Shown here in pieces: positions 2,614-20,184 of a stretch of DNA of 35,229 bases. The position numbers were made by a program, and so were the translations under genes. This DNA is from a virus: positions 1 through 35,229 of the IMG/VR virus record IMGVR_UViG_3300011013_001952, one strand, 5' to 3'. Within the stretch, counting starts at the first letter, position 1. The number at the start of each line of letters is the position of its first letter. A model generated the notes under the pieces. It did not search any database, was not told where the DNA came from, and saw only the letters and a program-made list of their open reading frames with translations.

Positions 2614-2622
2614 AGTATTATT

Positions 2623-3519: not shown

Positions 3520-3520
3520 T

Positions 3521-3832
3521 ATGAAACGAGGACCACTATCTAACGACGAAAAGTCTTACATAGAAAAAAATTCCACTAAAACTGTGACAGCGCTATCAAA
3601 AAAACTTAATAGATCCGAAACAATAGTTGCTGGTCATTTGGAAACTGTAAAAGATAATGTTGAAGACGTGACAATTACACACAATCTATTTGCTAGAAAA
3701 AAAGATAGAGGTGTTGTTGTAATGACAGAAGCTGCTTCAATAGTTTCGGATGAAAATAAATCTAAAAGAAAAACTGAAATTAATGTATCATCAAGACATG
3801 AGGGGTCGATACATAAGATTAAAGAGGGTTAA
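3521..3832 (+). CDS. Putative helix-turn-helix DNA-binding protein
   Basis: The N-terminal 45 residues read like a short HTH domain: GPLSNDEKSYIEKN, then TVTALSKKLNRSETIV. This is the pattern of a first helix, a turn and a recognition helix seen in many phage proteins that open with GPLS-x-EEK. The remaining 60 residues are charged and rich in Lys, Ser and Glu, and probably disordered. It could be a small transcriptional or replication regulator. There is no second dimerisation domain. A clear GGAG site lies 8 bases before the start. Confidence 0.68.
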   Translation: MKRGPLSNDEKSYIEKNSTKTVTALSKKLNRSETIVAGHLETVKDNVEDVTITHNLFARKKDRGVVVMTEAASIVSDENKSKRKTEINVSSRHEGSIHKIKEG

Positions 3833-3833
3833 C

Positions 3834-5803: not shown

Positions 5804-6207
5804 ATGTCAAGGGTCTTGACGGAAGAGAATATAGTTGGACTCCTGCTAGAAATCAATCAAGATCTAAGGAAAAATCTAGTTTACATAATAAGGCAAAAAA
5901 ACTTCTTGAAGAAATCTATCCTTTTGATAGAATATTAGAGGAAGTTTCTCTTCCGGGATCTAAAACAAGTAGACGAAAATCAATATTGAGAGCAGACCTT
6001 TTTATTCCAAACAGAAGTCTAATTGTAGAAGTACACGGTGAACAACACTTTAAGTATAATTCGCACTTTTTTAAGGATAAAATGAGTTTCTATAAAGCTC
6101 AGGCACGGGATAGAGATAAGTCTGAGTGGTGTGTTCTGAACAACATTAAATTAATTGAACTCAAGTATAACGAGGATATATATGAGTGGCGAAGAAAAAT
6201 TGAATGA
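5800..6207 (+). CDS. Small PD-(D/E)XK-type endonuclease (DUF559/Vsr-like)
   Basis: The 135-residue protein shows a nuclease core: Glu38/Glu47 region helix, Asp66 in RADLFIPN, then Glu77-Val-His79 in VEVHGEQH, and a conserved QARDRDKSEWC helix followed by IKLIELKY. D...E-x-H/K is the metal-binding pattern of the PD-(D/E)XK fold as in Vsr, DUF559 and related small endonucleases, with His in place of Lys. The ATGA overlap with the recombinase stop indicates coupled translation. It probably acts in recombination, repair or host DNA breakdown. The specific substrate cannot be told. Confidence 0.75.
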   Translation: MNVKGLDGREYSWTPARNQSRSKEKSSLHNKAKKLLEEIYPFDRILEEVSLPGSKTSRRKSILRADLFIPNRSLIVEVHGEQHFKYNSHFFKDKMSFYKAQARDRDKSEWCVLNNIKLIELKYNEDIYEWRRKIE

Positions 6208-6646
6208 ATTTTTATCCAAGATAGAAGATTGGATAACACTTAGTCATATTGATATTACAAAAGAAACTTCTACAGCTCATGTTATTTTAAACACAAGTGA
6301 AATGGAACTACGAGCATTAAATGCTGAGGATTGTTTAGAAAAGGCTTATACATTATATGCTCATGCGGATTATTTGCAGAGCTTATATAATAAACAAAGA
6401 GTTATTCTAGATTGGGCTGACGATAGTATCTGGTATATTATATCGCCAACAATTAATCAGTATGGTGACAAGTATACTAAATGGCAAGAAAAATATTGGA
6501 ATGCTGTACGAGAAAATCCGTTTGCTTCAGAAATTATAAAAATAAAAACACACGCTCACGCACGTATACTCGCCCTTAGTGAAAAGGCTGATAATGCTAA
6601 AAGAATGGGAGACATACTGCAAAATCTTTCAAAGAGGAGAACATGA
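6182..6646 (+). CDS. Helical protein next to the recombinase, possible UvsY-like mediator
   Basis: The frame is open from 6155, but the ATG at 6182 has a GAGG site with 6-base spacing and avoids a long overlap. The 154-residue product is almost wholly charged and helical: EEKLNEFLSKIEDWI at the start, ALNAEDCLEKAYTLYAHADYLQSLYN in the middle, and a C-terminal basic helix (ADNAKRMGDILQNLSKRR). T4 UvsY, the recombination mediator, is of similar size, helical, and encoded near the recombinase in T4-like phages. This resemblance is of size, composition and place only. No sequence motif proves it. Confidence 0.6.
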   Translation: MSGEEKLNEFLSKIEDWITLSHIDITKETSTAHVILNTSEMELRALNAEDCLEKAYTLYAHADYLQSLYNKQRVILDWADDSIWYIISPTINQYGDKYTKWQEKYWNAVRENPFASEIIKIKTHAHARILALSEKADNAKRMGDILQNLSKRRT

Positions 6647-7089
6647 TGTCTATTATTGATACAGCTAAAGATTTACTAAAAAAGGGAATGGCTCTTAATG
6701 ATCCTGATCTTATTAAGATGGCAAATGAATTGTTAGAACAAGCCGATGCTCCTCCTCCTGAGCCGCCAAAAAAAGAAAGTCCTGCATTAGATTCTTTAGT
6801 AACCAAGAAAGAGGGCGACTTTATCTCGTCTATAACTAATGAAGAAAATATGAAGGCGACTAATGCCACTCCTGTAAATCAAATGAAACACAAGAATCTT
6901 TTTGTAGACGAAAAGACAGACGCATTAGATATAACTACTCCAAGTTATACGCCTACGGCTAGAGATAGAAAGAAAACTAAAAAGTTAGAACAAAAATGTG
7001 AAGAATGTCGTAAGACGACTTCTGTTTTAGAAATACATGTAAGAGATTATTTTGTTTGTGATAGTTGTCTCGCAAGAAGGAGAAGATAG
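6643..7089 (+). CDS. Phage protein with C-terminal zinc ribbon (148 aa)
   Basis: Two ATGs (6643, 6646) follow a GAGGAGA site at 6633-6639; the first makes an ATGA overlap with the previous stop. Residues 1-32 form one amphipathic helix (DTAKDLLKKGMALNDPDLIKM), then comes a Pro-rich linker (DAPPPEPPKK), a charged disordered stretch, and a four-Cys ribbon at the end (Cys119-x2-Cys122, Cys139-x2-Cys142) closing with RRRR. The layout suggests a flexible nucleic-acid-binding or protein-bridging factor linked with the recombinase module upstream. No function is known. Confidence 0.66.
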   Translation: MMSIIDTAKDLLKKGMALNDPDLIKMANELLEQADAPPPEPPKKESPALDSLVTKKEGDFISSITNEENMKATNATPVNQMKHKNLFVDEKTDALDITTPSYTPTARDRKKTKKLEQKCEECRKTTSVLEIHVRDYFVCDSCLARRRR

Positions 7090-7553
7090 TGTCTAAAATT
7101 GATCCTAATACAGTTTTTATCGTAAAGCCAAAACCAATTGCTATTAAGAAGTTGACGGAAAATGCTACAGTGCCTACAAAGAACAATACTTCTGATGCAG
7201 GATGGGATTTATATGCTGTAGAAGATGCTGTAATAAATAGTGGAGATAGAACTACAATTGCCACCGGAGTTGCTATGGCTATCCCAGAAGGATATGTTGG
7301 TTTAATCTGGCCCCGTTCTGGCCTAGCCGTTAAAAGTGGTGTTGATGTATTTGCAGGAGTTATAGATTCAGGATACAGAGGCGAAATTAAAGTATGTTTA
7401 TATAACTCTTCTAAAGAAGAGCTAAAAATTACTACAGGTGATCGTATAGCACAAATTCTTTTCCAAGAGATCCCAAGCTTTTCCTTGACTATTGTTGATT
7501 CTCTTGATATAACTGAAAGAGGAGGCGATGGCTTTGGGAGTTCTGGCAAGTAG
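7089..7553 (+). CDS. dut: dUTPase (deoxyuridine 5'-triphosphate nucleotidohydrolase)
   Basis: The 154-residue trimeric-type dUTPase has all five family motifs: SDAGWDLYA at 35-43, PRSGLAVK at 75-82, GVIDSGYRGEI with catalytic Asp93, GDRIAQILF, and RGGDGFGSSGK as the very C-terminus (144-154). It converts dUTP to dUMP and PPi, keeping uracil out of phage DNA and supplying dUMP. The frame extends upstream to TTG 7065, but GTG at 7089 overlaps the previous TAG by one base and is preceded by AAGGAGAAG, so it is taken as the start. It begins the nucleotide and replication block. Confidence 0.95.
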   Translation: MSKIDPNTVFIVKPKPIAIKKLTENATVPTKNNTSDAGWDLYAVEDAVINSGDRTTIATGVAMAIPEGYVGLIWPRSGLAVKSGVDVFAGVIDSGYRGEIKVCLYNSSKEELKITTGDRIAQILFQEIPSFSLTIVDSLDITERGGDGFGSSGK

Positions 7554-7562
7554 GGAGATATT

Positions 7563-7877
7563 ATGTATAATTACAAAGCCAAACTAATTCGCTGCATAGA
7601 TGGAGATACTGTAGAGTTCGATGTAGACTTGGGATTAAGGTTAACCGCTAGACTGCGTTGTCGGTTATTAGGAGTAAATACTCCAGAACGTGGTCATGAA
7701 GATTATAAGAAGGCAACTCACGAACTTAAAAAACTAATCGTAGAAAATATGGATGACCAAGGATGTATTGATATTAGAACGTATAAAACTGGTAAATATG
7801 GAAGATGGCTGGTAGAAATTGGCGAAAATGCTAGTGTTAATAAGACTATGGCTGAGAGGTGGCCGTCAAACTATTGA
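7563..7877 (+). CDS. Staphylococcal-nuclease-like (SNase/thermonuclease) protein
   Basis: The short 104-residue SNase-fold nuclease carries IDGDTVEFDVDLG near residues 12-24, then RLRCRLLGVNTPERG with the catalytic-type Arg and Glu, and KTGKYGRWLVEI with the second Arg. It ends with a form of the family C-terminus. No signal peptide is present, so unlike secreted SNases it should act in the cytoplasm, where phage members could degrade host DNA or RNA. A GGGAG site sits 5-6 bases upstream of the start. It overlaps no real neighbour; a GTG-initiated frame that opens inside it (7859) belongs to the next gene's upstream region. Confidence 0.85.
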   Translation: MYNYKAKLIRCIDGDTVEFDVDLGLRLTARLRCRLLGVNTPERGHEDYKKATHELKKLIVENMDDQGCIDIRTYKTGKYGRWLVEIGENASVNKTMAERWPSNY

Positions 7878-7888
7878 TAGGATATCTA

Positions 7889-8467
7889 ATGAAAACAATT
7901 GTGTCTAGATTTATTATTTTAGCTATTGCGGGTCTGTCTATAATGACGATGATAGTTCTTGGGGCACCAAAAAAAAAGCTAAATAATACAGAAGCTAAGT
8001 TCGAGGAAATATATACTATCTTAACTAAGATGAACGAATACGAAAACTGTTTAGCTGACACTCAGCTGAGGAATCTACATTACGCTAAACCTCATACAGA
8101 GTTACAGAAGTTTTGTGTGGAGTGTTATGACTTATGGGGCAAGCAAGACGAAAGTATTGTAGAAATTTCTGTAGAAGAACTCAAACGGCTCAGAAAAACA
8201 TCCGAAGAAACAGTTGTCCCGGAAGAGGCTTTATCTATAGAAGAAGAATTAGATTCTATTATAACACTCTTGAAGGGGCATCGTTCCTTTTTATATATGA
8301 TACGGAATTCCGAAGAAAAAACGTATCACTATATGAAAAAGCATCCGTATGATAAAGCGGGTGCTGTAGATAAATGTCCTGATTGTGTTGCTCTCCGTAA
8401 AAAACAAACTACAGAGACAACTTTTATTTCTAAAAAAGAATATGATAAATTGATCAATGACAAATAA
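7889..8467 (+). CDS. Membrane-anchored protein with Cys pairs (192 aa)
   Basis: The frame can be read from GTG 7859, but ATG 7889 has an AGGA site with a 6-base gap and does not invade the nuclease gene. An N-terminal hydrophobic segment (about residues 5-22, IVSRFIILAIAGLSIMTMIV) acts as an anchor. It is followed by a charged, coiled-coil-prone soluble part with a CVECYDLW pair in the middle and a CPDC pair near the end. The Cys pairs could bind a metal together or make disulfides. The last 11 bases overlap the helicase gene. No family is recognised. Confidence 0.7.
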   Translation: MKTIVSRFIILAIAGLSIMTMIVLGAPKKKLNNTEAKFEEIYTILTKMNEYENCLADTQLRNLHYAKPHTELQKFCVECYDLWGKQDESIVEISVEELKRLRKTSEETVVPEEALSIEEELDSIITLLKGHRSFLYMIRNSEEKTYHYMKKHPYDKAGAVDKCPDCVALRKKQTTETTFISKKEYDKLINDK

Positions 8468-9923
8468 ACGCTCCCTACAAGACGTGGCGGCTGAAAGAGC
8501 TGTACTGGCTGGTTTATGTCAGTACGGCTTAGACGTTTTTTTAGACATTGACTTTATTGATACTGATCATTTTACTAATGAAATGAATCAGGTGCTTTTC
8601 AAGTGTATCAAAAAGGTGATATCGGAAAGCAGTCATGTCGAATTAGCTTCAATTTTATCAGCAGCTAATAATCTAAATCTATATGAGAACATCAATAATA
8701 AAAATGAGATCGGTTTTCTGCGGTCTCTTTTTAATTTTCCTATTCATAAAGACAATGTAAGTCTTCATGGTGCTAAGCTAGCTAAATTAAAACTAGCGAG
8801 AAACCTGAAACAAACACTTAAAGTTTGCGAGAAACGTCTTGATGCCGTCAGTGGAGACGAAGATTTAACTGAGTTGATCTCCATCGTAGAGTCTCCAGTA
8901 TTAGACGCTACGTCTGCCGTCTATGAGTCGTCTGGTACTACCCCAGAAATAATTGGTAATGATGTAGAAGATTATATTAATCATCTAGCTGACAATCCCG
9001 CTGAAATGATTGGTATTAGCAGTGGGTTTTCAATTTATGACCAAGCAATAGGTGGTGGTTTAAGAAGAAAGTGTGTGGACCTTGTGGCTGCACGTCCTAA
9101 GGTTGGCAAGTCTATGTTTGGAGATGCTGTAGCCCTCCACGTTACACAAAATTTAGATATTCCAGTTCTCATGTTAGACACAGAAATGTCTAAAGAGGAT
9201 CATCTTAATAGAATGTTGGCTAATTTAAGTGGTGTAGACATTAATAGAATCTCTACGGGTAAATTTGCGGATAACGAAATAGACAAAAGAAAAATAGAAG
9301 AAGCGGCCGAGAAGTTAAAGAGTATTCCCTATCACTACATTAGTATTGCTGGACAGCCCTTTGAAAACATTTTAGGATTAATGCGTAAGTGGCTCTATCA
9401 ACACGTTGGTGTTGACGAAAACGGCAGAACTAAAGACTGTCTTATAATATATGACTATTTAAAGCTAATGGGTTCTGATGGAATTTCTAACTCTATGCAA
9501 GAATTCCAGTTGCTAGGTTTTCAGATTACGCAACTCCATAATTTTTGTGTTAAGCACGACGTACCATGTTTAAGTTTTGTACAATTGAATAGAGATGGTA
9601 TAACTAAGGAATCAACAGATGTAGTTTCTGGTTCAGACCGTTTAATTTGGTTATGCACCAGTTTTACTATATTTAAAATGAAGTCAGACGAGGAAATAGC
9701 AGATGATCTAGAGGATAATGGTAATAGAAAATTAGTGCCCGTAGTGGCACGTCATGGGGCTGGACTGGATGATGGCGATTATATTAATATGAATATGTTT
9801 GGAAAATATGGAAAAATAGAAGAAGGTAAAACGCGCAACGAATTGAAAAAGTCTACCAGAAAAACAGACAAAGGATTTGAAACTGATGAAGATTACGACG
9901 GCGCAGATATCGCATCTGTCTAA
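8457..9923 (+). CDS. Replicative DNA helicase, DnaB-like
   Basis: The 488-residue protein has the DnaB plan: an N-terminal helical domain (AAERAVLAGLCQ, about residues 10-100), a linker, then a RecA-fold motor. Walker A is ARPKVGKS at 212-219, a divergent form of the usual GRPSMGKT; TEMSKEDHLNRMLA matches helicase motif H1a, IIYDYLKLM is the Walker B region, and SFVQLNRDG matches motif H3. It should unwind DNA at the fork as a hexamer in step with the primase encoded directly after it. It overlaps the upstream gene by 11 bases and the primase gene by 38 bases in another frame. Confidence 0.93.
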   Translation: MTNKRSLQDVAAERAVLAGLCQYGLDVFLDIDFIDTDHFTNEMNQVLFKCIKKVISESSHVELASILSAANNLNLYENINNKNEIGFLRSLFNFPIHKDNVSLHGAKLAKLKLARNLKQTLKVCEKRLDAVSGDEDLTELISIVESPVLDATSAVYESSGTTPEIIGNDVEDYINHLADNPAEMIGISSGFSIYDQAIGGGLRRKCVDLVAARPKVGKSMFGDAVALHVTQNLDIPVLMLDTEMSKEDHLNRMLANLSGVDINRISTGKFADNEIDKRKIEEAAEKLKSIPYHYISIAGQPFENILGLMRKWLYQHVGVDENGRTKDCLIIYDYLKLMGSDGISNSMQEFQLLGFQITQLHNFCVKHDVPCLSFVQLNRDGITKESTDVVSGSDRLIWLCTSFTIFKMKSDEEIADDLEDNGNRKLVPVVARHGAGLDDGDYINMNMFGKYGKIEEGKTRNELKKSTRKTDKGFETDEDYDGADIASV

Positions 9924-10929
9924 TAAATTATTTGATCGGGTTTCTGATTTGTTAGATCATTTTGAGATAGAATATGTCGAACATCATAACCGTCTTGCAT
10001 TTCCATGTCCAATACATGGTGGAGATAATCCCGATGGATGTTCTATTTTTATAGATGGAAATACAATTAAAGGAAACTGGAAATGTTGGACACGTCAGTG
10101 CGAAGAAGATTTTGCTTCTAATCTATTTGGTTTTGTGCGAGGAATTTTATCTTATCGGAATGATAAAAATGTACATCTGTTAGACACTTTTGAGTACTGC
10201 CTGAAATTTCTAGACACTAATATTGAGAGTCTAGACACTTACAGTGAACCTTTAGAGATAAACAAGGAACTCAAACTATTAGAAATTTTTGAAAAAAAAC
10301 CTGAACGTTATTCAAATAAAGTTAAACGGGACGAAGTACGACGTAGAATAAATATACCCGCTAAGTACTATATTAATAGAGGATATCGTTCTGAAACGTT
10401 AGATTTGTTTGATGTGGGACTTTGTTTGGAAAAAAATAGGCCAATGTCGGGAAGAATTGTTGTTCCAATTTATGATGAAGACTATAATTATGTTGGATGC
10501 GTTGGTAGATCTGTATCCCCAGACATGCTTCCCAAATGGTTGCATAGTAAAGGATTTAGAAAAACATATCTTTATGGACTAAACTTAGCTCATGAATACA
10601 TCGCTAAAACAGGAACTGTTATTCTAGTGGAAGGACAAGGCGACGTATGGAAGATGCATGAGGCGGGTTTTAAAAATACTGTTGGTATATTTGGAGCAAG
10701 TTTAACTGATGATCAATTAGTACTATTAGAACAAAGTGGAGCACTCGATGTCGTAATTCTCACAGATTCTGATGAAGCGGGCGAGAAGGCGGCGGAACAA
10801 ATAATGGAAAAATGTGGAAGAAGGTTTAATTATTATCGCCCCAAGATCTCCGAAAAGGATGTTGGAGATATGACAGTTACGAAGATTAAAGAAGAGCTTA
10901 GTGATCAAATCCAAGGAGCGTCTCTATGA
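9886..10929 (+). CDS. DnaG-type DNA primase
   Basis: The 347-residue primase shows an N-terminal zinc site (FPCPIHGG ... WKCWTRQCEED: Cys-x2-His, 22 residues, Cys-x4-Cys), a catalytic core segment (KYYINRGYRSETLDLFDVG) and a TOPRIM domain with VEGQGDVWK and LTDSDEAGEKAA (metal-binding Glu and Asp-x-Asp). It makes RNA primers for the DnaB and pol III machinery. It is shorter than bacterial DnaG (about 580 aa), lacking the C-terminal helicase-binding domain. Start: TTG 9877 is possible in frame, but AAGGA at 9871-9875 fits ATG 9886 (10-base gap). The stop makes an ATGA overlap with the next gene. Confidence 0.92.
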   Translation: MKITTAQISHLSNKLFDRVSDLLDHFEIEYVEHHNRLAFPCPIHGGDNPDGCSIFIDGNTIKGNWKCWTRQCEEDFASNLFGFVRGILSYRNDKNVHLLDTFEYCLKFLDTNIESLDTYSEPLEINKELKLLEIFEKKPERYSNKVKRDEVRRRINIPAKYYINRGYRSETLDLFDVGLCLEKNRPMSGRIVVPIYDEDYNYVGCVGRSVSPDMLPKWLHSKGFRKTYLYGLNLAHEYIAKTGTVILVEGQGDVWKMHEAGFKNTVGIFGASLTDDQLVLLEQSGALDVVILTDSDEAGEKAAEQIMEKCGRRFNYYRPKISEKDVGDMTVTKIKEELSDQIQGASL

Positions 10930-11747
10930 ATAGAATTCTTGCCTTTGCTGGAACTAAACAGGCTGGTAAAAACACTTGTTGCAACTTTTTACATGGCTAC
11001 CAGTTACGGTCATATCATATTATAGATAATTTTGCTATTACTGAAAGCGGCGAACTGGCTGTAGACACAAAGGTTGTAGATGCTGAAGGTAATGAGCAAC
11101 AAAATCAGGGCGTTCTAGATGTTACAAGAATCGATGCAGACTTCATGGAGTGGGCGATGTATAACATGTGGCCCTTTGTGAAACATTATGCGTTTGCTAC
11201 AGCCTTAAAAGAAATTTCTATGGGCTTATTTGGCTTGACTAAAGATCAGTGTTATGGTACTGATCAAGACAAAAATACTTTTACCACATGGAGATGGGAA
11301 AATATGCCCGGTGTTGGTAAAAAAAAGGGACGTATGAAAGCTAGAGAATTTCTGCAATATTTTGGTAGTGATATTTGTAGGGAAATAAATGAAAATGTTT
11401 GGACGGATACAACAATAGAACAGATAGAAAAAGAAAGCCCATTAATTGCAATTATTAGTGATTGTAGATTTCCAAACGAGGTAGAAGCTATTCATAGTGC
11501 TGGTGGTAAAGTTATTAAATTAACTCGACACAAAGATACTAAAGATCGACATGCTAGTGAAACAGCTTTAGAGGATTGGAAAGAATGGGATACCGTTATT
11601 GATAATCAAAACTTAAGTATCCAAGAGACAAATATAGAAATTATTAAAACCTTGGATGAGTGGGGATGGTTAGGAAGTGAAATTAAACAACCCGAACCTA
11701 CTGATAATAAACAATTGGTAGGAGGCATTAAAAAGATAAAAGAATAA
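10926..11747 (+). CDS. Deoxynucleoside monophosphate kinase (T4 gp1-like)
   Basis: The 273-residue P-loop kinase has GTKQAGKNT as Walker A near residues 9-17, and the dNMP kinase signature AREFLQYFGSDICREI in the middle, followed by NVWTD and ISDCRFPNEVEAI. In T4-type phages this enzyme phosphorylates dNMPs, including modified ones, to dNDPs. With dUTPase nearby it forms part of a nucleotide supply set. It lies between primase (ATGA overlap) and the RecB-like gene (overlap of one base, TAATG). The C-terminal 40 residues are an acidic, possibly disordered tail. Confidence 0.9.
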   Translation: MNRILAFAGTKQAGKNTCCNFLHGYQLRSYHIIDNFAITESGELAVDTKVVDAEGNEQQNQGVLDVTRIDADFMEWAMYNMWPFVKHYAFATALKEISMGLFGLTKDQCYGTDQDKNTFTTWRWENMPGVGKKKGRMKAREFLQYFGSDICREINENVWTDTTIEQIEKESPLIAIISDCRFPNEVEAIHSAGGKVIKLTRHKDTKDRHASETALEDWKEWDTVIDNQNLSIQETNIEIIKTLDEWGWLGSEIKQPEPTDNKQLVGGIKKIKE

Positions 11748-12766
11748 TGTTAATAACCTACATCAGAAGTTCCAGTTATAATAATTACGAATATTGTGAG
11801 ATGCAATATTTTATAACCTATGTGCTTGGCCATCAGTCTATCTCGGGCAAAAAGGCACAACTGGGAACGATTGTTCATAAGGTGATGGAATGTCTAGCCT
11901 CATGTAAAAAAAGACTCCAATACCGAGAGAACAAACAAATGTCTATTACTGACGATGCTCTCGGTAAAATTAAGTTCTCTAAGAGACAGCTTGATACCAA
12001 AAAGTTTGTAAACACTTTGCTTGATTTAAGTTATGATTACTATACTAGTACCTGTGTTCATAATTACACCAACGCAGATTTTAATTTTTGTAAAAAATCA
12101 ACATGGGATGCTTTGGAATATAACGATGGACAATTTGACCCCCGTAAGAGAAATGTGATCGCTAGTGAACCACAGTTTGATATCCCTATTGAAGAAGACT
12201 GGGCTAAGTATTCTTATAAAATGCCAGATGGCAAACGTATAGACGGAGTACTGGCTATCAAAGGAACTATTGATTTAGTAACACAAGTCGATGATAATAC
12301 TATCGAGGTGATTGACTGGAAAACGGGGAGACGTTTAAATTGGGCAACAGGTGAAGAAAAAACTTATGAAAAACTGATTGAAGATCCTCAACTGTTATTG
12401 TATAACTATGCTATATCAAAACTATTTCCTGAATATGACCAAGCTATCATGTCGATATTCTACATTAGGGATGGTGGTCCATTCAGCATGTGCTTTGACA
12501 GCAGCGATCAGAAGAAATTTCTGGGCATGCTTAAAAAGAGGTTTGAACAAATACAAAATAATAATACGCCTATGCCGATTTCTCGGGATAGAAGTAACTG
12601 GAAATGTACTAAACTATGTCACTTTTATAAAAATAAATGGCCCGGAACCAATAAAACTATGTGTCAATATGTTGAAGGAGAACTTAAAGGAACTGGCATG
12701 AAAGACACAATTAATAGTTGTACCAAAGAAGGCTTTAGTATTGGACACTATGAGGCACCGGGATAG
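11747..12766 (+). CDS. RecB/Cas4-like PD-(D/E)XK nuclease with putative Fe-S cysteines
   Basis: The 339-residue protein carries the PDDEXK core: GTIDLV with Asp176, then Asp190-Trp-Lys192 in VIDWKTGRR, and the QLLLYNYA motif that is typical of RecB-family nucleases. Four Cys are placed like a Fe-S nuclease ring: Cys17 in the N-terminal YEYCEMQY, and Cys287-x3-Cys291 and Cys306 near the end. The spacing differs from the usual C-x2-C-x5-C. It opens with SSSYNNYEYC, typical of Cas4/AddB-type proteins. It probably acts as a 5' or end-processing exonuclease in replication or recombination. Confidence 0.85.
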   Translation: MLITYIRSSSYNNYEYCEMQYFITYVLGHQSISGKKAQLGTIVHKVMECLASCKKRLQYRENKQMSITDDALGKIKFSKRQLDTKKFVNTLLDLSYDYYTSTCVHNYTNADFNFCKKSTWDALEYNDGQFDPRKRNVIASEPQFDIPIEEDWAKYSYKMPDGKRIDGVLAIKGTIDLVTQVDDNTIEVIDWKTGRRLNWATGEEKTYEKLIEDPQLLLYNYAISKLFPEYDQAIMSIFYIRDGGPFSMCFDSSDQKKFLGMLKKRFEQIQNNNTPMPISRDRSNWKCTKLCHFYKNKWPGTNKTMCQYVEGELKGTGMKDTINSCTKEGFSIGHYEAPG

Positions 12767-12786: not shown

Positions 12787-13437
12787 ATGAGCCTTTTAAG
12801 ATTAGACTTATTAAGCAATGAAGCAATTCAAAATTTATCTCCTTCCTTCGATCTTCTCACTCCCACAGATCACAAAGACGGTCAATATAGATTACGCCGT
12901 TATTCTATGGTAGAGTTGCTAACAGAACCCTATATGTTTAAAACCCTTCCAACTACTACATTTATGCAAACAGATGAGTATAATGATTTTCAAGGAAATA
13001 TTGAAAGAAAATTTGAGAATGTAGATGAGGATATATTGGATGGAAAAGGAATGAAGGAATTAATATATAAGTTTAGAACGTTCAATGAACTACCCATAGG
13101 AACTCCAATAGATATACATCAAATGAGAATCATAACTCTGTATGATGAGACTCCCGTTTCTCCTGAGGGAGTTCATCAAGATGGCTATGATTTTATTGCT
13201 ATGATTGGAATAGCAAGACATAATATAAAGGGAGGACACCTTCTAGTTTATACCGAACAAGACGGCGATCATTTTATGTCAATACCTTTAGATGCAGGTC
13301 AAATGGTTTCACTTGATGATACTAAATTGTGGCACAACGCTAGTGATATTGAGACTGTAGATAAAACCAAAAATGGATACATGGATGCGATTATTGTAAC
13401 AGCTAAAATAGATAAAAAGGATTCCGTTTGGATATAA
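12787..13437 (+). CDS. 2OG-Fe(II) dioxygenase, PF10014 (isoleucine dioxygenase-like) family
   Basis: The 216-residue protein matches the 2OG-Fe dioxygenase family that includes bacterial L-isoleucine 4-hydroxylase: an early RLRRYS segment, the VHQDGYDF motif with His130 and Asp132, GGHLLVY, and the distal LWHNASD with His183, giving the HxD...H iron triad. Family members usually have an Arg in a RDVLVVT-like strand soon after the distal His, and here that position reads YMDAIIVTAK, with Met. So 2OG binding may differ. Substrates in the family are free amino acids; here the substrate is unknown. It sits between two nuclease genes of the replication block, with an AAAGGA site 7-8 bases upstream. 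Confidence 0.78.
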   Translation: MSLLRLDLLSNEAIQNLSPSFDLLTPTDHKDGQYRLRRYSMVELLTEPYMFKTLPTTTFMQTDEYNDFQGNIERKFENVDEDILDGKGMKELIYKFRTFNELPIGTPIDIHQMRIITLYDETPVSPEGVHQDGYDFIAMIGIARHNIKGGHLLVYTEQDGDHFMSIPLDAGQMVSLDDTKLWHNASDIETVDKTKNGYMDAIIVTAKIDKKDSVWI

Positions 13438-13441
13438 AAAC

Positions 13442-13951
13442 ATGATTGAAATTGAAATTACAGAAGCTATGAAAAAACGAGCATGGAGAAAAGCTCGCAG
13501 TATGGGACAGCTGAAGAACTCTATTACTGCTGGTCAAGGAAATATTGCTGGTTTTTTAGGCGAAGAGGTTGCAAATGAGATAATCAATGGTATAGTATCA
13601 AATACATACGACTATGATATCTTGTATGAAACAACATCTAAAAAGATTAAGTACGATGTTAAAACAAAAAGATGTACTAGTGAGCCTAAGCCGTTTTATG
13701 AATGTAGCGTAGCCGCTTATAATACTAAACAAGGATGTGATAGATATGCATTTGTAAGGGTTGAATATAAAAACGGAAGGTGGGGAAGAGCGTGGGTGTT
13801 AGGGTGGCTAGAAAAGGAGGAGTATTTTAAAAATGCTCATAAGCTACGTAAGGGACAAGTAGATCCATCAAATGGATTTAAAGTGAAAGCTAATTGTTAT
13901 AATGTAGCAATTTCAGATCTCAAAAATTTTAGAAGAAGGAAGGGAAAGTAA
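13442..13951 (+). CDS. Small PD-(D/E)XK-like phage nuclease
   Basis: The 169-residue protein has the N-terminal helix and loop NIAGFLGEEVANEI with Glu42, then Asp59 in DYDILY, and Asp72-Val-Lys74 in YDVKTKR, a D...D-x-K arrangement of the PD-(D/E)XK superfamily. A C-terminal WVLGWLEKEEY and a basic end (NFRRRKGK) follow. I recall similar proteins in large phages and cyanophages. It could be a Holliday-junction, mismatch or host-restriction nuclease, but the motif does not say which. Its last base is the first base of the next small gene's ATG. Confidence 0.74.
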   Translation: MIEIEITEAMKKRAWRKARSMGQLKNSITAGQGNIAGFLGEEVANEIINGIVSNTYDYDILYETTSKKIKYDVKTKRCTSEPKPFYECSVAAYNTKQGCDRYAFVRVEYKNGRWGRAWVLGWLEKEEYFKNAHKLRKGQVDPSNGFKVKANCYNVAISDLKNFRRRKGK

Positions 13952-14127
13952 TGCCAACTAATGATTCCGAAGCCCGCCAAATATTTAGTATCATCAACGA
14001 GTTTATTGATGTACCAACCGCTAAAAAAATTACTACACGTCTTTATGAACAGGTTGGACAGCATACTGATAATGAATCTTTAGCAATTAGTTTAAAAATG
14101 CTCAAAGCTTTGTATGAGGATCATTAA
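13951..14127 (+). CDS. Small unrecognised protein (58 aa) just before the polymerase
   Basis: An open frame of 59 codons starts with ATG sharing one base with the upstream TAA (TAATG), with GGAAGGGAAAG ribosome-site material in front. It ends in TAA 14 bases inside the polymerase gene. The product is mostly helical and acidic: EARQIFSIINEFIDV, then TTRLYEQVGQHTDNESLAISLKMLKALYED. It fills what would otherwise be a 160-base gap, and the coupled overlaps on both sides support that it is translated. It resembles no family I know; an adaptor or regulatory role is only a guess. Confidence 0.6.
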   Translation: MPTNDSEARQIFSIINEFIDVPTAKKITTRLYEQVGQHTDNESLAISLKMLKALYEDH

Positions 14128-15676
14128 GTTGAATTGGGCTCCTCTTTCTGTACACACGCACTACAGTTTGTTACGTGGGTTTTGTAAGCCATATGAAGTT
14201 GTGTCTAAGTGCAAAGAGTATGGTTATCAAGCATGCGCTATTACTGACTATAAATCGGTTTCTGGCGCTGTAAATTTTTACAAAGCCTGTAAAGATGAAG
14301 GCATTAAGCCAATCATTGGATGTGATTTCGGTGATTGTACGCTCTTAGCCAAAAATAAAAACGGATGGTTGGACTTAATAGAATTAGTAGGAGCTATAGA
14401 CACTGATGATTTTAAGTCAGTTCTAACTGAGATATTTCAGAAAGATAATCTATACAAATTAGATAACTCTTTACGTGATAGAGAAATTTATTATGTACAT
14501 AAAGAAGATGCTATTCTACAAAGAATTCTTTTATGTTCTGGAATGAAAACTACTTTACCTAAAGTAGAATCAAAACTCGAAGAGCACAATAGGCGGTTTT
14601 TTGAATCAGACAAATTCTATTTACCTTCTCCAAACGATTTTGACGATATAGGAATTGATACAAGTGAGATTGAAAAAGTAAATGAAATAATTGATCTTTG
14701 TGAAGAGTATGATATACTAAGAAAACCAATGCTTCCCACGTTTGTATGTCCAGATGGAATGGAAGAAAATGACTATTTAACAGATCTCTGTAGAGAAGGA
14801 TGGAAACGTTTACTGATTCCACAAGGTAAAGTTAAGACAGACGATAAAAAACAAATTTATGTGGATCGTATAAAGACAGAATTAGATGTTATATTTGGAG
14901 CAGATCTATCTGGATACTTTCTTATTGTACAAGATATTATTAGACATGTTGAGGCTCAAGGATGGTTAGCAGGACCCGGACGAGGATCAGCCGCAGGATG
15001 CTTGATATCTTATTTAATCGGTATTACTAATGTGGACCCTATTGAATATGGTTTAATTTTTGAAAGATTTTATAACGAAGGAAGAAATACCGCAGAGTAC
15101 ACGTCTCTTCCTGATATTGATATTGATGTACCAGCTGAACATCGAGAGGATGTTATAGGTTATATTAAAGATAAATACGGATCAGACAACGTAGCACAAA
15201 TGCTTACATTTGGAAGACTACAGGGAAGAGCTGCTCTTAAAGAGGTTTTAAGAATGCACAACGCAGCTTCATTTGCTGAAATGAATGAAATTACAAAGGG
15301 TATTCCTAATGAGGCAGAAATTTCTGATCAACTAGAAAGCATGGAAGAGAAGTCTATTATTAAATGGGCTTTATTAAATGAGGGAGACAATCTTAGAAAG
15401 TGGTGTAAGATCAACGACGGCAAACTAGAAGGCTCTCTAGCGCCACTTTTTGAACAAGCTATAAGAATCGAAGGCACAAATAAGTCAATGGGAAAACACC
15501 CTGCTGGTGTTATTATTTCTAAACATCGTCTCAATTCTATCTGTCCTATGACTCAGGATAAAAGCGGCAATATGATGGCCGCCTTTGAAATGGGAGATCT
15601 TGAAAGTCAAGGACATGTAAAATTTGATATATTAGGTATTGATCTATTAAGTAAAATTATGGAAATTAAGGAGTAG
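14114..15676 (+). CDS. dnaE-N: DNA polymerase III alpha subunit, N-terminal half (PHP remnant and palm)
   Basis: Residues about 8-60 match the PHP start of DnaE (VHTHYSLL, AITDYKSVSGAVNFY, GIKPIIGCDFG). The usual 70-80 following residues of PHP are missing by comparison with E. coli DnaE, so the metal site is probably lost. The palm follows: GPGRGSAAGCLISYL, LIFERFYN, catalytic Asp334 and Asp336 in PDIDID, and Asp505 in KFDILG, which corresponds to the third catalytic Asp. The protein stops 15 residues after that motif; E. coli continues without a break. With the C half it makes about 1041 residues, close to full DnaE. An alternative start (TTG 14129) is possible. It overlaps the small upstream gene by 14 bases. 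Confidence 0.93.
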   Translation: MRIIKLNWAPLSVHTHYSLLRGFCKPYEVVSKCKEYGYQACAITDYKSVSGAVNFYKACKDEGIKPIIGCDFGDCTLLAKNKNGWLDLIELVGAIDTDDFKSVLTEIFQKDNLYKLDNSLRDREIYYVHKEDAILQRILLCSGMKTTLPKVESKLEEHNRRFFESDKFYLPSPNDFDDIGIDTSEIEKVNEIIDLCEEYDILRKPMLPTFVCPDGMEENDYLTDLCREGWKRLLIPQGKVKTDDKKQIYVDRIKTELDVIFGADLSGYFLIVQDIIRHVEAQGWLAGPGRGSAAGCLISYLIGITNVDPIEYGLIFERFYNEGRNTAEYTSLPDIDIDVPAEHREDVIGYIKDKYGSDNVAQMLTFGRLQGRAALKEVLRMHNAASFAEMNEITKGIPNEAEISDQLESMEEKSIIKWALLNEGDNLRKWCKINDGKLEGSLAPLFEQAIRIEGTNKSMGKHPAGVIISKHRLNSICPMTQDKSGNMMAAFEMGDLESQGHVKFDILGIDLLSKIMEIKE

Positions 15677-15678
15677 AC

Positions 15679-15918
15679 ATGAGAGACCACCAGATTATTA
15701 GACAAGATTTTAAATCTGTTATTTACTATGGCGCTGCTATAGATTATAATAAAATTTCAATATGTGATCTAAGACGAATGCTTCCTGAATATCGAGACAG
15801 AAAAGAAGGTATGTATCAAGTTGATGCGAGTGGATCACAACTCAAGTTCTCTAAGATATATAAGAATATTGATGATGCATTAGACAAATTTTTTGAAATT
15901 GTACAAGGAACCTCCTAA
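15679..15918 (+). CDS. Unrecognised small protein between polymerase halves (79 aa)
   Basis: The gene starts two bases after the N-half stop and shares one base with the next start (TAATG). The protein is 79 residues with a beta-like start (DFKSVIYYGAAIDYN), a MLPEYRDRKEG turn and a helical end (IDDALDKFFEIVQ). It has no resemblance to the C-terminal parts of DnaE, to inteins or to homing endonucleases. Its position between alpha-N and the exonuclease suggests a replisome accessory, for example a linker or an exonuclease partner, but there is no motif to support that. A GGAG site lies 7 bases upstream. Confidence 0.62.
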   Translation: MRDHQIIRQDFKSVIYYGAAIDYNKISICDLRRMLPEYRDRKEGMYQVDASGSQLKFSKIYKNIDDALDKFFEIVQGTS

Positions 15919-16607
15919 TGAACTACAGAGATATTATTGTTTTCGACTTTGAAACTGGTAGCCGTAATCCATTGATGACACAACCTACTCAAATAGCAGC
16001 AATTGCCATCCATGCTAGAAAGCTAACCCTCCAACCCGGAGGTGTTTTTAATAGTGAGATCAGGCCAATTATAGACGAAGAGAAAGCGGTGGCGGCTGGT
16101 GTTGATCCTCTAGAAGATGAAGCATTAGAAATTACGAACAAAAACAGGGACGCATTAGCAAAGGCTCCTCTTCCCAAAACGGTATGGAAAAAGTTTGGAC
16201 AGTTTTGTGATAAATATAACTTTAAGAAATCAAGCTGGACAGCACCTATTGCTGCTGGCTACAATATTATTGGATTTGATTTACCAATCGTTAAGCGTTT
16301 ATGTGAAACATATGGTCCTCTGGATACTAATGGTAGACAAAAACTTTTTAATCCCATCTTTAAGCTTGACCTGATGGATATGGTATTTTCATGGACAGAA
16401 AACAACAAGGATATTAAGTCACTAAATATGGACTATTTGAGAGAGTACTTTGGTTTCCCAGAAGAGTCTAAAGAAAACGCGCATGATGCACTTCAGGATG
16501 TTAAAGATACCGCCAACATACTAATTAAGTTTTTGAAATTTCAAAGGAAGCTTGCAGAAAAAACTAAATTTGAAAAGGCTTTTGCGAATGGCGAATTTTA
16601 CGTTTAA
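15918..16607 (+). CDS. DEDDh 3'-5' exonuclease, DnaQ-like (proofreading)
   Basis: The 229-residue protein carries the three Exo motifs: Asp10/Glu12 in DFET, Asp121 in GYNIIGFD, and His189/Asp194 in AHDALQDV, so it is of the DEDDh type seen in DnaQ (epsilon). It removes mismatched 3' ends; encoded inside the split polymerase, it likely works as the separate proofreading unit. It has an N-terminal core only, with no visible clamp-binding motif. The first base overlaps the preceding stop, and the last 20 bases overlap the start of the C-terminal polymerase half. Confidence 0.92.
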   Translation: MNYRDIIVFDFETGSRNPLMTQPTQIAAIAIHARKLTLQPGGVFNSEIRPIIDEEKAVAAGVDPLEDEALEITNKNRDALAKAPLPKTVWKKFGQFCDKYNFKKSSWTAPIAAGYNIIGFDLPIVKRLCETYGPLDTNGRQKLFNPIFKLDLMDMVFSWTENNKDIKSLNMDYLREYFGFPEESKENAHDALQDVKDTANILIKFLKFQRKLAEKTKFEKAFANGEFYV

Positions 16608-18153
16608 TATCAACGATTTTTATGATGATCGAGTGTGGGATTTAATATGCGACGGTAGAACTAAAGGAGTGTTTCAGCTGGAGTCCCAATTAGGACGCTC
16701 ATGGGCAAAGCGTGTATCTCCTCGTAATATCAATGAGCTATCAGCTTTGATATCCTTAATCCGTCCCGGATGTCTAAAGGCATTTACAGATGGTAAATCC
16801 ATGACGCAACACTACGTGGATAGGAAAGCTAATCTTGATCCTGTTGTTTATCCCGACGATTCCTTAGAACATATACTTCAAGAAACCTATGGTGTATTAG
16901 TATATCAAGAACAATCTATGATGATCGCTCAAGAGTTAGCTGGATTCAGTCTTAAAGAAGCAGATTCGCTTCGCAAGGCTATTGGAAAAAAGAAAGCTGG
17001 TCTAATGGCTGAGGTAAAAAAATCTTTCTTATCAGGCGCTAAAAAGAAAGCTATTGTTACTAAAGGTGTAGCTGAAGAAATTTTTTCGTGGATTGAAAAA
17101 TCTAACCGTTACGCTTTCAATAAATCTCACGCGGTAAGCTATGCAATGAATGCTTATTGGAGCGCCTACTGTAAGTGCTATAGACCTGTCAAGTTTTTTA
17201 AAACGTATTTAAATCATGCTAAAAGAAAACCAGATCCCAAACAAGAGATTAAGGAATTGGTAACCGACGCTAAGATGAATGATATTGAGGTGTATCCTCC
17301 TCGTCTTAAACATCTATATAAAAATTTTCAATCTGTTTCAAAAACAATATACTTTGGTATTAATAATGTTAAACAGGTCGGTGAAGTAGAATGCGATAAG
17401 ATAAACAGGTTTCTCCCCGAAGCCGAAGAGATACTTCATAAGACGATAGACAATTGGAATTGGCTTGATATTCTCAATAACTTATGTTCCATATTAAATA
17501 AACAGGCCGTTATAGCTTTGATTTCAGTAGGCGCATTTAACGGTAAAAATAATAATAAAAACAGAAATGAAATGTTATATGAATTCGATAGCTGGAAACA
17601 GCTATCTCCAAGAGAGCAAAAGTATATAAAAGCAAACTATCATCAACATGATACATTAATTGAATGTATGGATGATATGATTAATAATTTAAAGATAAAC
17701 TCTAGAAGACTTGTTACTGTAGCTGATATTAAAAATTCTCTAGAAAATCCATTTTATGATATTAAAGATGATCCCGTGTGGATCGCTGAGACTGAAGAAA
17801 AATATATGGGATGTGCATTAACGTGTGGAAAAACTGACTATATACAAAGCGCTATTGTTAATACTATCTGTAAAGATATTGCTCTTGGTTATATGAAAGG
17901 TAAAGTGAATGTAGCTGTTCAAATCAATTCCTTAAGAGAGTATAAAACAAAAAAAGGTAAAAATCCGGGACAACTTATGGCGTTTTTGTCTGTAGAAGAT
18001 AGCTCAGGAGTTCTGGATTCAGTCATTGTATTTCCAGAAGATTATCAGAAAAATAAGGAATTTTTAGTTGAAGGCAATATGGTAATACTGATGGGGCAAA
18101 CCTCTAAAAAAGAAGATGGTGGAATTATTGTGAATAAAGTGTGTCAAATTTAA
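16588..18153 (+). CDS. dnaE-C: DNA polymerase III alpha subunit, C-terminal half (fingers, HhH, OB)
   Basis: The 521-residue protein begins where E. coli DnaE reads DDKKSFDML...AVFQLES: here DLICDGRTKGVFQLES. Then come ALISLIRPG, the GVLVYQEQSMM fingers motif, LRKAIGKKK, NKSHAVSYAM, and, after a helical stretch, a C-terminal OB-fold (VAVQINSLREY...LMAFLSVEDSSG...). No catalytic Asp lies in this half, so activity needs the N half. The frame is open from 16552, but ATG 16588 has an AAAAGG site with a 9-base gap and starts MANFTFN. The final OB domain has no obvious beta-clamp motif. Confidence 0.93.
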   Translation: MANFTFNINDFYDDRVWDLICDGRTKGVFQLESQLGRSWAKRVSPRNINELSALISLIRPGCLKAFTDGKSMTQHYVDRKANLDPVVYPDDSLEHILQETYGVLVYQEQSMMIAQELAGFSLKEADSLRKAIGKKKAGLMAEVKKSFLSGAKKKAIVTKGVAEEIFSWIEKSNRYAFNKSHAVSYAMNAYWSAYCKCYRPVKFFKTYLNHAKRKPDPKQEIKELVTDAKMNDIEVYPPRLKHLYKNFQSVSKTIYFGINNVKQVGEVECDKINRFLPEAEEILHKTIDNWNWLDILNNLCSILNKQAVIALISVGAFNGKNNNKNRNEMLYEFDSWKQLSPREQKYIKANYHQHDTLIECMDDMINNLKINSRRLVTVADIKNSLENPFYDIKDDPVWIAETEEKYMGCALTCGKTDYIQSAIVNTICKDIALGYMKGKVNVAVQINSLREYKTKKGKNPGQLMAFLSVEDSSGVLDSVIVFPEDYQKNKEFLVEGNMVILMGQTSKKEDGGIIVNKVCQI

Positions 18154-18169
18154 GAAGTGTTTATATAAC
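18141..18169 (+). promoter_or_regulatory. Candidate sigma70-like promoter before ssb
   Basis: GTGTCA at 18141-18146 (four of six to TTGACA) and TATAAC at 18164-18169 (five of six to TATAAT) are 17 bases apart. They overlap the polymerase stop codon and precede the ssb start by about 30 bases. The gap of 47 bases between polymerase and ssb is unusually wide for this window, which favours a start of a new transcript. In an AT-rich sequence such matches arise by chance, and the phage may use its own promoters. A weak hairpin (GAGT CCCT ACTC) lies just after. Confidence 0.28.
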
Positions 18170-18200
18170 ATAAGAGTCCCTACTCAAATTGGAGATTCTT

Positions 18201-18545
18201 ATGAATAGATGCACTTTTGTCGGTAGATTAGTAGCCGATCCTAAACTAAAAAAAGTTAATAATACCCACCTTGTAAGCTTTACTTTAGCTATTGAAGAGC
18301 ATAGAAAAGATAAAGATGGCACTAAAAAAAAGCGAGTGGATTTTCTAGAATTCGAGGCGTGGGATAGTGGAGCCACGACTATCGAAAAGTACTGTAAAAA
18401 AGGAGACTTTATTGCAGTGGAAGCTATTGCTCGACAACAAAGGTGGACTGTTGGTGAAGAAAAAAGACAGAAGGTCAACTTTAGAATAACAAATTTTAAG
18501 ATCTTCAATAGTAATAAAGAAGAAACTCTTAATGAAGAAACGTAA
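18201..18545 (+). CDS. ssb: Single-stranded DNA-binding protein
   Basis: The 114-residue protein is a single OB-fold SSB: MNRCTFVGRLVADPKLKKV, FTLAIEEHRKDKDG, RVDFLEFEAWDSGATTIEKYCKKGDFIAVE, then EEKRQKVNFRITNFKIF. It binds single strands at the fork for the polymerase and recombinase encoded upstream. Unlike bacterial SSB it lacks a long Gly/Pro tail and the DDDIPF-type end; the tail is short and acidic (NKEETLNEET). The frame opens at TTG 18189, but GGAG at 18191-18194 with 6-base spacing selects ATG 18201. The end overlaps the first glycan gene by 14 bases. Confidence 0.92.
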   Translation: MNRCTFVGRLVADPKLKKVNNTHLVSFTLAIEEHRKDKDGTKKKRVDFLEFEAWDSGATTIEKYCKKGDFIAVEAIARQQRWTVGEEKRQKVNFRITNFKIFNSNKEETLNEET

Positions 18546-20184
18546 AAAAATCTTGTTTTGCACAGAAGCCTCGTTTTTACCAACAGGATATTCTGTATAT
18601 ACCAAGGAAGTTCTGTCTAGACTGAATCGTATTCCCGATTTAGAGGTAGCGGAATTAGCTTGTTATGTAGACGTTAATAATCCTTCTCTGAAGGATGTCC
18701 CGTGGAAAATATATCCCAATCAACCCTTATCGGATTCTCCAGATTGGGGCACATATAAATCATCTCCATCATACCAATTTGGTGAATATACATTTGATTC
18801 TGTGTTGCTTGATTTTATGCCTGACTTCGTTATGGATATTCGTGACTGGTGGATGATAGAATTTCAGGCAAGGTCTACTTTTCGAGACTATTTTCACTGG
18901 GCTATAATGCCAACAGTAGATGCCTATCCTCAAAATCCACAGTGGATCACAACTTTTGCTAGTGCTGATTCAGTATTTACGTATTCTGAATTCGGAAGAG
19001 ACGTGCTGCTTTCGCAGTGCGACGATATTAAATATAAAGATATTGCGTCTCCTTGTGCTAGTGAAAACTTTAAACCTGTTATCAATAAAGCTAAACATAA
19101 GGACTCTATGGGAATAACAGGAGATATATTTCTTATTGGTACTGTAATGAGAAACCAAAAGAGGAAATTATATCCAGACCTGTTTCGTGTCTTCAGGAAC
19201 TTCTTAGATGCAACCAAGACTACAAACGCATATTTGTATTGCCATACTTGTTATCCTGATGTAGGTTGGGATATTCCACGTCTACTACAGGAATTTGATT
19301 TAACCCACAGGGTTTTGTTTACGTATAAGTGTAATTCTTGTAATGAAATACAACCCAACTTCTTTAAAGACTCTTTTACCTTCTGTAAAAAATGCGGCCA
19401 GTTTAGTAGTCATATGGCTGGTATAAGTAATAAAGTGGAAGAATCAGAATTCTGTAAGATATATAATTTATTTGATGTATATATACAATATGCAAATAGC
19501 GAAGGGTTTGGAATGCCTCAGCTGGAAGCTGCTCAGTGTGGTGTCCCCATTATGTCTGTAGAGTATTCCGCAATGGAATCTGTGATTAATAATATTAAAG
19601 GTATAGCGTTAAAGCCCTTAGCTTTAAATAGAGAATGCGAAACAGGATGCTATAGAGCAGTCCCCAATAATGAAGAAACATTACAAAAGTTAATAGAACT
19701 GTATTCTAATGCTGATACGTTACCTGCTTTAGGTACTGAGATTAGAAAGAATACATTGTATCATTATGATTGGAATAAAACTGCATCCGTATGGGCTAGG
19801 CACTTCCAAGAAACCGAAGTTAGAGATCATAGAGAAACTTGGTTATCTCCTCCCCAAATTATAGAACCTGCTCCAGCTCCTCCTGAAAATCTAAGTCCAA
19901 CTGATCAAACTAATTATTTGTTTGAAAGAGTACTAGCCAAACCAGAATGGATAGGGAATTACTTGTGGAAAAGGACGGTGCGAGATTTAACATATAGACG
20001 TATGATTGAAAGTACCCATAGAGATTTTTATTTTAATGAAGCACATAATACATTAGCTGCTGGGACTATGGGTTCACAACCTTTCGATATAGAAAAAGCA
20101 TATAAAAGTTTCTGTGATTTAAGGGCATCGTTTAATAAATGGGAACAACATAGACATGAAAGTATTGTACATCGGCAACTATAA
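18532..20184 (+). CDS. GT-B glycosyltransferase (GT4-like) with inserted zinc ribbon
   Basis: The 550-residue protein opens with a Rossmann strand (KKILFCTEASFLPTGYSVYT), and the second domain has the EX7E motif, Glu324 and Glu332, in EGFGMPQLEAAQCGVP. Between the two domains lies a four-Cys insertion, Cys267-x2-Cys270 and Cys285-x2-Cys288, with a zinc-ribbon look and rare in this enzyme class. A Pro-rich linker (PAPAPPENLSP, about residue 445) leads to an extra C-terminal domain of about 100 residues of unknown fold. It should move a sugar from an activated donor to an acceptor in the cytoplasm. It is the first gene of the glycan locus and overlaps ssb and the next gene. Confidence 0.85.
   Translation: MKKRKKILFCTEASFLPTGYSVYTKEVLSRLNRIPDLEVAELACYVDVNNPSLKDVPWKIYPNQPLSDSPDWGTYKSSPSYQFGEYTFDSVLLDFMPDFVMDIRDWWMIEFQARSTFRDYFHWAIMPTVDAYPQNPQWITTFASADSVFTYSEFGRDVLLSQCDDIKYKDIASPCASENFKPVINKAKHKDSMGITGDIFLIGTVMRNQKRKLYPDLFRVFRNFLDATKTTNAYLYCHTCYPDVGWDIPRLLQEFDLTHRVLFTYKCNSCNEIQPNFFKDSFTFCKKCGQFSSHMAGISNKVEESEFCKIYNLFDVYIQYANSEGFGMPQLEAAQCGVPIMSVEYSAMESVINNIKGIALKPLALNRECETGCYRAVPNNEETLQKLIELYSNADTLPALGTEIRKNTLYHYDWNKTASVWARHFQETEVRDHRETWLSPPQIIEPAPAPPENLSPTDQTNYLFERVLAKPEWIGNYLWKRTVRDLTYRRMIESTHRDFYFNEAHNTLAAGTMGSQPFDIEKAYKSFCDLRASFNKWEQHRHESIVHRQL

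What the first reader, a model, noticed from the sequence alone, without database searches (positions are those of the whole stretch)
14114..18153. Split DNA polymerase III alpha with an exonuclease gene between the halves
DnaE similarity runs through three palm Asp (334, 336, 505), stops, and resumes in another gene at the fingers (GVFQLES), with a 79-aa protein and a DEDDh exonuclease in between. The break lies in a linker between palm and fingers. No intein or homing endonuclease is visible, and it differs from the cyanobacterial split-intein site. Two polypeptides must therefore assemble, perhaps with the exonuclease, into a single polymerase. The two halves add to about 1041 residues, close to normal DnaE, so little has been lost at the join.
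Basis: partly seen in the sequence, partly recalled or inferred. Interest (0 to 1): 0.78.

Follow-up and report, generated by a model that had tools for sequence, protein, structure and literature searches.

The report
Phage replicase split around its proofreader
In a large group of mostly uncultured viruses of bacteria, the gene for the DNA-copying enzyme is cut into two genes at the boundary between its palm and fingers domains, with a proofreading nuclease gene between them; both halves are kept intact by selection, so two proteins most likely assemble into one working replication enzyme.

Summary
Window 14114-15676 (PHP + palm, with D334, D336, D505) and 16588-18153 (fingers to OB) are the two parts of one C-family (DnaE-type) polymerase, separated by a conserved 79-aa protein and a DEDDh exonuclease.

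It is not an assembly accident. 122 of 123 distinct viral loci holding both sides of the junction are split at the same linker with the exonuclease between. Between close relatives both halves mostly show dN/dS of 0.01-0.1. Twelve contigs of 103-173 kb hold no PolA or PolB, and one fingers domain each, so this is probably the phage replicase.

The key comparison is a relative (L124/L199) with the same neighbours but the order s79-exo-dnaE(one frame)-ssb and an intact PHP site. The split phages have dnaE-N before s79-exo and have lost PHP metal ligands. Bacillaceae phage phiT1 has a separate split at the same linker.

No intein, intron or frameshift was found that could rejoin the halves. A two-chain polymerase working with the exonuclease is the best explanation: inferred, not shown biochemically. 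Split phage PolIII-alpha genes are known (Iyer 2021), so this is a new variant of a known kind.

The parts
14114..15676 (+). DnaE N half: degenerate PHP domain + palm/thumb, 520 aa; PGRGS 288-292, D334, D336, K503, D505
   Evidence: AlphaFold model pLDDT 90.8, Foldseek E 1e-34 to PolIII alpha
15679..15918 (+). s79: conserved 79-aa protein of unknown function, found in 195 loci (some contigs are held as more than one locus), absent from one split subclade
   Evidence: fold alpha-beta4-alpha, pLDDT 90.3, no PDB match at E<=0.001
15918..16607 (+). DEDDh 3'-5' exonuclease (RNase_T; PHROG 192 DNA polymerase exonuclease subunit)
16588..18153 (+). DnaE C half: fingers, HhH-like and OB regions, 521 aa; start overlaps the exonuclease by 20 bp (ORF open from 16552)
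18189..18545 (+). single-strand DNA-binding protein, next gene of the module
8457..9923 (+). DnaB-like replicative helicase of the same module
9877..10929 (+). Toprim/DnaG-like primase
11747..12766 (+). RecB/Cas4-like PD-(D/E)XK nuclease; syntenic anchor upstream of the polymerase in both split and one-frame relatives

Best explanation
The window encodes a two-chain C-family DNA polymerase. Shown: the PHP-palm chain and the fingers-HhH-OB chain are encoded as separate genes, broken in the palm-fingers linker, in an operon order dnaE-N, s79, exo, dnaE-C, ssb. Shown: the arrangement is old and under purifying selection. Inferred: the two chains assemble non-covalently through the interface that is intramolecular in ordinary DnaE, giving one active site with the catalytic Asp residues from the N chain and the nucleotide-binding fingers from the C chain, and this is the phage's own replicative polymerase. 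Inferred: proofreading, lost or weakened with the PHP site, comes from the DEDDh exonuclease encoded between the halves, an epsilon-like partner; s79 is an accessory factor that is not always required. Likely origin: an ancestor with the order s79-exo-dnaE-ssb, as in L124, in which the dnaE-N segment came to lie upstream of s79-exo, for example by tandem duplication of the module followed by complementary loss.
For: 122 of 123 distinct loci are split with the exonuclease between (174 of 174). dN/dS, window versus L003: N 0.064, C 0.020, exo 0.026, s79 0.052; in other pairs N and C mostly 0.01-0.1. Catalytic motifs are invariant in both halves and in the exonuclease. The N half is predicted to fold on its own as PHP-palm-thumb, pLDDT 90.8, and matches PolIII alpha structures. 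12 contigs of 103-173 kb: no PF00136, no PF00476, one fingers-domain gene each (two pieces in one contig with an interrupted C half), DnaB in 11. The one-frame relative L124/L199 shares the neighbours dNMK, RecB/Cas4, g13442 and ssb, and differs in the place of dnaE-N. PHP ligands are intact in L124 and L217 but lost in the split genes sampled. phiT1 (PV767480) has gp20/gp18 split at E. coli 574/584, and grouping it with the other splits to the exclusion of L124 is rejected, p 5e-91.
Against: No expression, complex or activity data. No phage beta clamp was found in the 12 contigs and no canonical clamp-binding motif was seen, so how processivity is obtained is unknown. The contigs may be incomplete, so a second polymerase cannot be excluded. 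The position of L124 as sister of all splits has support of only 80/61, and nested positions are not rejected (p 0.30-0.43), so L124 could be a re-fusion or the split could have happened more than once.
Confidence: 0.8

Rival explanations
1. The halves are rejoined after transcription or translation by a trans-acting split intein or a split (trans-spliced) intron, so the working enzyme is one chain.
For: Split inteins with free-standing endonuclease genes do occur elsewhere in this same polymerase (FNK|SH site) in relatives L060, L122, L124, L126.
Against: No intein sequence at the end of N or the start of C: N ends 5 residues after the palm match and C starts 12 residues before the fingers match. 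No Rfam intron in 13400-18700 at E<=1. N and s79 are 2 bp apart, exo and C overlap. In L117 the N stop overlaps the exonuclease start, leaving no room for an intron half.
Confidence: 0.05
2. The polymerase is a decaying or inactivated gene; the phage relies on the host polymerase.
For: The PHP domain has lost most metal ligands; the gene is in pieces.
Against: dN/dS of about 0.02-0.06 in both window halves, invariant palm and fingers motifs, conservation in 122 loci over deep divergence.
Confidence: 0.03
3. The halves do not form one polymerase; N (nucleotide-binding palm) and C (DNA-binding fingers/OB) act separately, or the C half exchanges with host DnaE.
For: A related idea, that split modules could cooperate with another polymerase, was raised for the minimal split PolIII alpha of jumbo phages that also carry PolB (PMC7824862).
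Against: The active site needs residues of both parts; no other phage polymerase family was found in 12 long contigs; N and C always occur together in one operon where both ends are in view.
Confidence: 0.07
4. Sequencing or assembly artefact, or a frameshift breaking a normal gene.
For: Metagenomic origin.
Against: Whole genes with their own starts lie between the halves; the same order recurs in 122 distinct loci from many metagenomes.
Confidence: 0.005

Closest known systems
Split minimal DNA polymerase III alpha of group 2.2 jumbo phages (Iyer et al. 2021, PMC7824862)
   Same: Phage PolIII alpha encoded as two standalone proteins proposed to reconstitute one enzyme.
   Different: There: a minimal catalytic module without the other PolIII domains, genes far apart, an additional family B polymerase, and (as described) division into an NTP-binding part and a Mg/template-binding part. 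Here: PHP, palm, fingers, HhH and OB all present, broken at the palm-fingers linker, halves in one operon around a DEDDh exonuclease, no PolB found.
Rossellomorea phage phiT1 gp20/gp19/gp18 (PV767480)
   Same: Two DNA polymerase III alpha genes broken at the same linker (E. coli 574/584), a small protein gene between.
   Different: About 36-38% identical, only a 49-aa protein between and no exonuclease there; a shared split to the exclusion of L124 is rejected.
Cyanobacterial split DnaE with the Ssp/Npu-type split intein
   Same: DnaE encoded in two genes.
   Different: There the chains are ligated by protein trans-splicing within the fingers (from memory: just before the conserved CFNKSH); here there is no intein and the break is about 175 residues earlier.
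Fractured genes with split inteins and Vsr-like endonucleases (Dassa et al. 2009, known to me; paper not held)
   Same: Phage replication gene broken into separately encoded parts; such elements sit in the C half of several relatives.
   Different: The N/C break of the window has no intein and the inserted gene is an exonuclease of the replication module, not a homing endonuclease.
Bacillus phage vB_BauM_KLEB27-3 gp166/gp165/gp164 and Bacillus phage G
   Same: Phage dnaE in pieces.
   Different: KLEB27-3 is broken at E. coli 612/628 by an HNH endonuclease gene, intron-like; phage G has at least three pieces.

Membership tests
C-family DNA polymerase (DnaE/PolIII alpha) | PHP + palm (PGRGS, DxD, KxD) + fingers with sequence similarity to DnaE | tested here: met
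C-family DNA polymerase (DnaE/PolIII alpha) | All catalytic parts in one polypeptide (usual, not strictly defining) | tested here: not met
C-family DNA polymerase (DnaE/PolIII alpha) | Polymerase activity | not testable with these tools
   no biochemistry
Split minimal PolIII alpha of jumbo phages (group 2.2) | Minimal module without PHP and other PolIII domains, with a PolB in the same genome | tested here: not met
   PHP, HhH and OB regions present; no PF00136 in 12 contigs; definition from PMC7824862
Split-intein DnaE (cyanobacterial type) | IntN at the end of the N gene and IntC at the start of the C gene | tested here: not met
   N ends at LLSKIMEIKE and C starts at MANFTFNINDF; both ends align with extein only
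DEDDh exonuclease / DnaQ-like proofreader (for the 229-aa protein) | D-E-D-H-D catalytic residues | tested here: met
   D10, E12, D121, H189, D194 invariant in 109 sequences
DEDDh exonuclease / DnaQ-like proofreader (for the 229-aa protein) | Physical association with the polymerase alpha subunit | not testable with these tools

The most novel reading that the evidence does not exclude
An old, widespread family of phage replicases in which a C-family polymerase works as a permanent heterodimer split at the palm-fingers hinge, built on or around its proofreading exonuclease. The split would have arisen by permutation of an operon (dnaE-N moved upstream of s79-exo) rather than by an intein or intron. 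In some relatives a further trans-splicing split makes it a three-gene polymerase, and the same hinge has been split separately in Bacillaceae phages.
Probability: 0.5. Interest if true: 0.75.

Novelty: new variant of a known kind. Interest (0 to 1): 0.6.

Why it matters
Replicative C-family polymerases are treated as single chains. A family in which the enzyme is permanently two chains, with the proofreader between them in the operon, gives a natural test of how palm and fingers communicate and how proofreading is coupled. It also gives two components for controllable polymerases. The comparison with the one-frame relative, which keeps the same neighbours, gives a view of how a gene can be broken without an intein or intron, and the separate split in phiT1 marks the palm-fingers linker as a tolerated break point. 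Practically, annotation pipelines will score such phages as having truncated or duplicated polymerases.

Tried and rejected
Intein or intron at the junction: none. Rfam on seven related loci with long gaps: only a tRNA. Pseudogene: rejected by dN/dS. Chance or assembly: rejected by recurrence. Second phage polymerase: PolA and PolB searches empty in 12 contigs, controls ring. Phage sliding clamp: none found by PF02767; simple clamp-motif scan negative in the window C half. Function of s79: no Pfam, no PDB sequence match of note, no PDB fold match at E<=0.001, weak similarity to small uncharacterised phage proteins (best E 0.058, TM about 0.6). Host: no bacterial genome held an exonuclease relative. 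Dating the split with the tree: FastTree placed the one-frame L124 inside the split clade, the mixture-model tree placed it outside (80/61), and nested placements are not rejected, so 'single origin' is favoured but not shown. Papers: Dassa 2009 and Kazlauskas & Venclovas 2011 are not held.

Full report
What is in the window. The genes lie on the + strand in one compact run. N half 14114-15676 (520 aa) matches PHP and DNA_pol3_alpha. s79 is 15679-15918. The exonuclease 15918-16607 matches RNase_T and PHROG 192 (DNA polymerase exonuclease subunit). The C half, from ATG 16588 to 18153 (521 aa), matches DNA_pol3_finger. SSB follows, and RecA, DnaB-like helicase, Toprim primase, dNMP kinase and a RecB/Cas4-like nuclease lie upstream, so this is a phage replication module. 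Against E. coli DnaE the N half matches to 565 and the C half from 593, and against Thermus PolIII alpha to 628 and from 652. With the 5 and 12 residues that run beyond those limits, the junction is complete: the break is in the linker between the palm (last strand with D505, then a helix) and the fingers. The catalytic set is invariant in 32 N halves, the finger residues in 27 C halves, and the DEDDh set in 109 exonucleases.

Real and old. Scans of IMG/VR with N, C and exonuclease gave some 200 loci. In all 174 loci that hold the end of N and the start of C (some contigs counted more than once) a stop lies between them and the exonuclease lies between. After removal of identical sequences 122 of 123 are split with the exonuclease between, and one is in a single frame. 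Divergence reaches about 40-50% identity. Window versus L003 gives dN/dS of 0.064 (N), 0.020 (C), 0.026 (exo) and 0.052 (s79); other pairs mostly give 0.01-0.1 for both halves, apart from a few with saturated dS. Twelve contigs of 103-173 kb have no PolA or PolB, one fingers-domain gene each and, in 11, a DnaB helicase. The contigs are not known to be complete.

No rejoining. There is no intein sequence at the junction, no Rfam match at E<=1 over 13400-18700, N and s79 are 2 bp apart, and exo and C overlap by 20 bp. In relative L117 the order is N-exo-C with no s79 and an overlap of N and exonuclease. The two chains therefore have to work as separate polypeptides (inference from sequence; no protein data).

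The one-frame relative. L124/L125/L199/L200 (two contigs) hold a dnaE in which palm and fingers are in one frame (894 aa up to an intein), with full-length PHP and its ligands intact, in the order dNMK-RecB/Cas4-g13442-s79-exo-dnaE-ssb-glycosyltransferases. The window has dNMK-RecB/Cas4-2OG-g13442-58aa-dnaE-N-s79-exo-dnaE-C-ssb-glycosyltransferases. In this module the main difference is the place of dnaE-N. L217 also has RecB/Cas4-s79-exo, then a methyltransferase-like gene, then a dnaE start with PHP ligands intact; its contig ends there. In the split genes examined the PHP has lost most ligands, and in most of them about 100 residues. L120/L126 keep PHP length but not the ligands, and have other genes in the gap.

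Order of events. A mixture-model tree puts L124 outside all the related split sequences (support 80/61); a FastTree run had put it inside, and AU tests do not reject nested positions (p 0.30-0.43). A single split from an L124-like ancestor is favoured, because an intact PHP is hard to regain, but re-fusion or repeated splitting is not excluded. A tandem duplication of s79-exo-dnaE with complementary loss would give the observed order; that is conjecture.

Elsewhere. Ordinary phage dnaE genes are single (Finn, Zemlya, MTATph1 and others). Rossellomorea phage phiT1 has gp20 and gp18 broken at the same linker (E. coli 574/584) with a 49-aa gene between, and grouping it with the other split genes to the exclusion of L124 is rejected (p 5e-91). 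KLEB27-3 (HNH gene at 612/628), Larrie (397/398) and phage G (at least three pieces) are broken elsewhere or more often. Iyer et al. 2021 (PMC7824862) described a split minimal PolIII alpha in jumbo phages that also carry PolB. Split phage C-family polymerases are thus a known kind; this is a new variant, by place of the split, operon, exonuclease between, and apparent role as the only polymerase.

Mobile elements around the split. The gap between the halves carries endonuclease VII-type genes (L021, L035), a GIY-YIG-like gene (L140) and sugar or methyltransferase genes in other relatives. The C half of several relatives has a split intein with a DUF559/MTES_1575 endonuclease gene at FNK|SH (L060, L122, L124, L126), and L206 has an in-frame HNH intein. 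In L060, L122 and L126 the polymerase would thus be assembled from three genes, one joint covalent by trans-splicing and the other not. The window itself has none of these.

s79. Present in 195 loci and absent from one split subclade, so it is not required for every split enzyme. Confident alpha-beta4-alpha model (pLDDT 90.3), no clear structural relative. Role unknown; an accessory or bridging factor of exonuclease and polymerase is a guess from position.

Verdict. Observation confirmed; interpretation supported at the level of sequence; assembly and activity untested.

Noticed in passing
L060 10931-13784; L122; L124 6214-9017; L126 8001-10502: Split intein with a free-standing DUF559/MTES_1575 endonuclease gene at FNK|SH of the DnaE fingers, close to the cyanobacterial DnaE intein site; in the already split relatives this makes a three-gene polymerase.
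   Followed up: partly
L206 10322-12676: C half with an in-frame HNH-containing intein near the RPG motif, a different intein site; L205 seems to carry both breaks.
   Followed up: partly
L021, L035, L180, L140, L146, L139, L141, L118 between the halves: The gap between the halves is an insertion hot spot: endonuclease VII-like, HNH-like and GIY-YIG-like genes, FkbM-like methyltransferases, nucleotide-sugar genes.
   Followed up: partly
L221 (PV767480) 4989-8271: Bacillaceae phage phiT1 has dnaE split at the same linker with a 49-aa gene between; both parts annotated as DNA polymerase III subunit alpha.
   Followed up: yes
L226 (OM634661) 3926-8296: KLEB27-3 dnaE is interrupted at FQIE by an HNH endonuclease gene; looks like an intron with its endonuclease, but no Rfam intron was found.
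   Followed up: partly
JN638751 239332-250008 (phage G): The dnaE of phage G is in at least three pieces; gp339 starts near the palm-fingers boundary.
   Followed up: partly
L231 (ON950054) 1833-5413: Tenacibaculum phage Larrie: dnaE in two adjacent genes broken inside the palm just before the DxD motif (E. coli 397/398).
   Followed up: partly
window 12787-13437: 2OG-Fe dioxygenase gene (PF10014) inserted in the replication module between the RecB/Cas4-like nuclease and the polymerase; absent at that place in L199.
   Followed up: no
window 5-943: DUF1501 protein, best known to me from bacterial genomes, in a phage contig; paralogue-like copies lie upstream of dnaE-N in L213 and L214.
   Followed up: no
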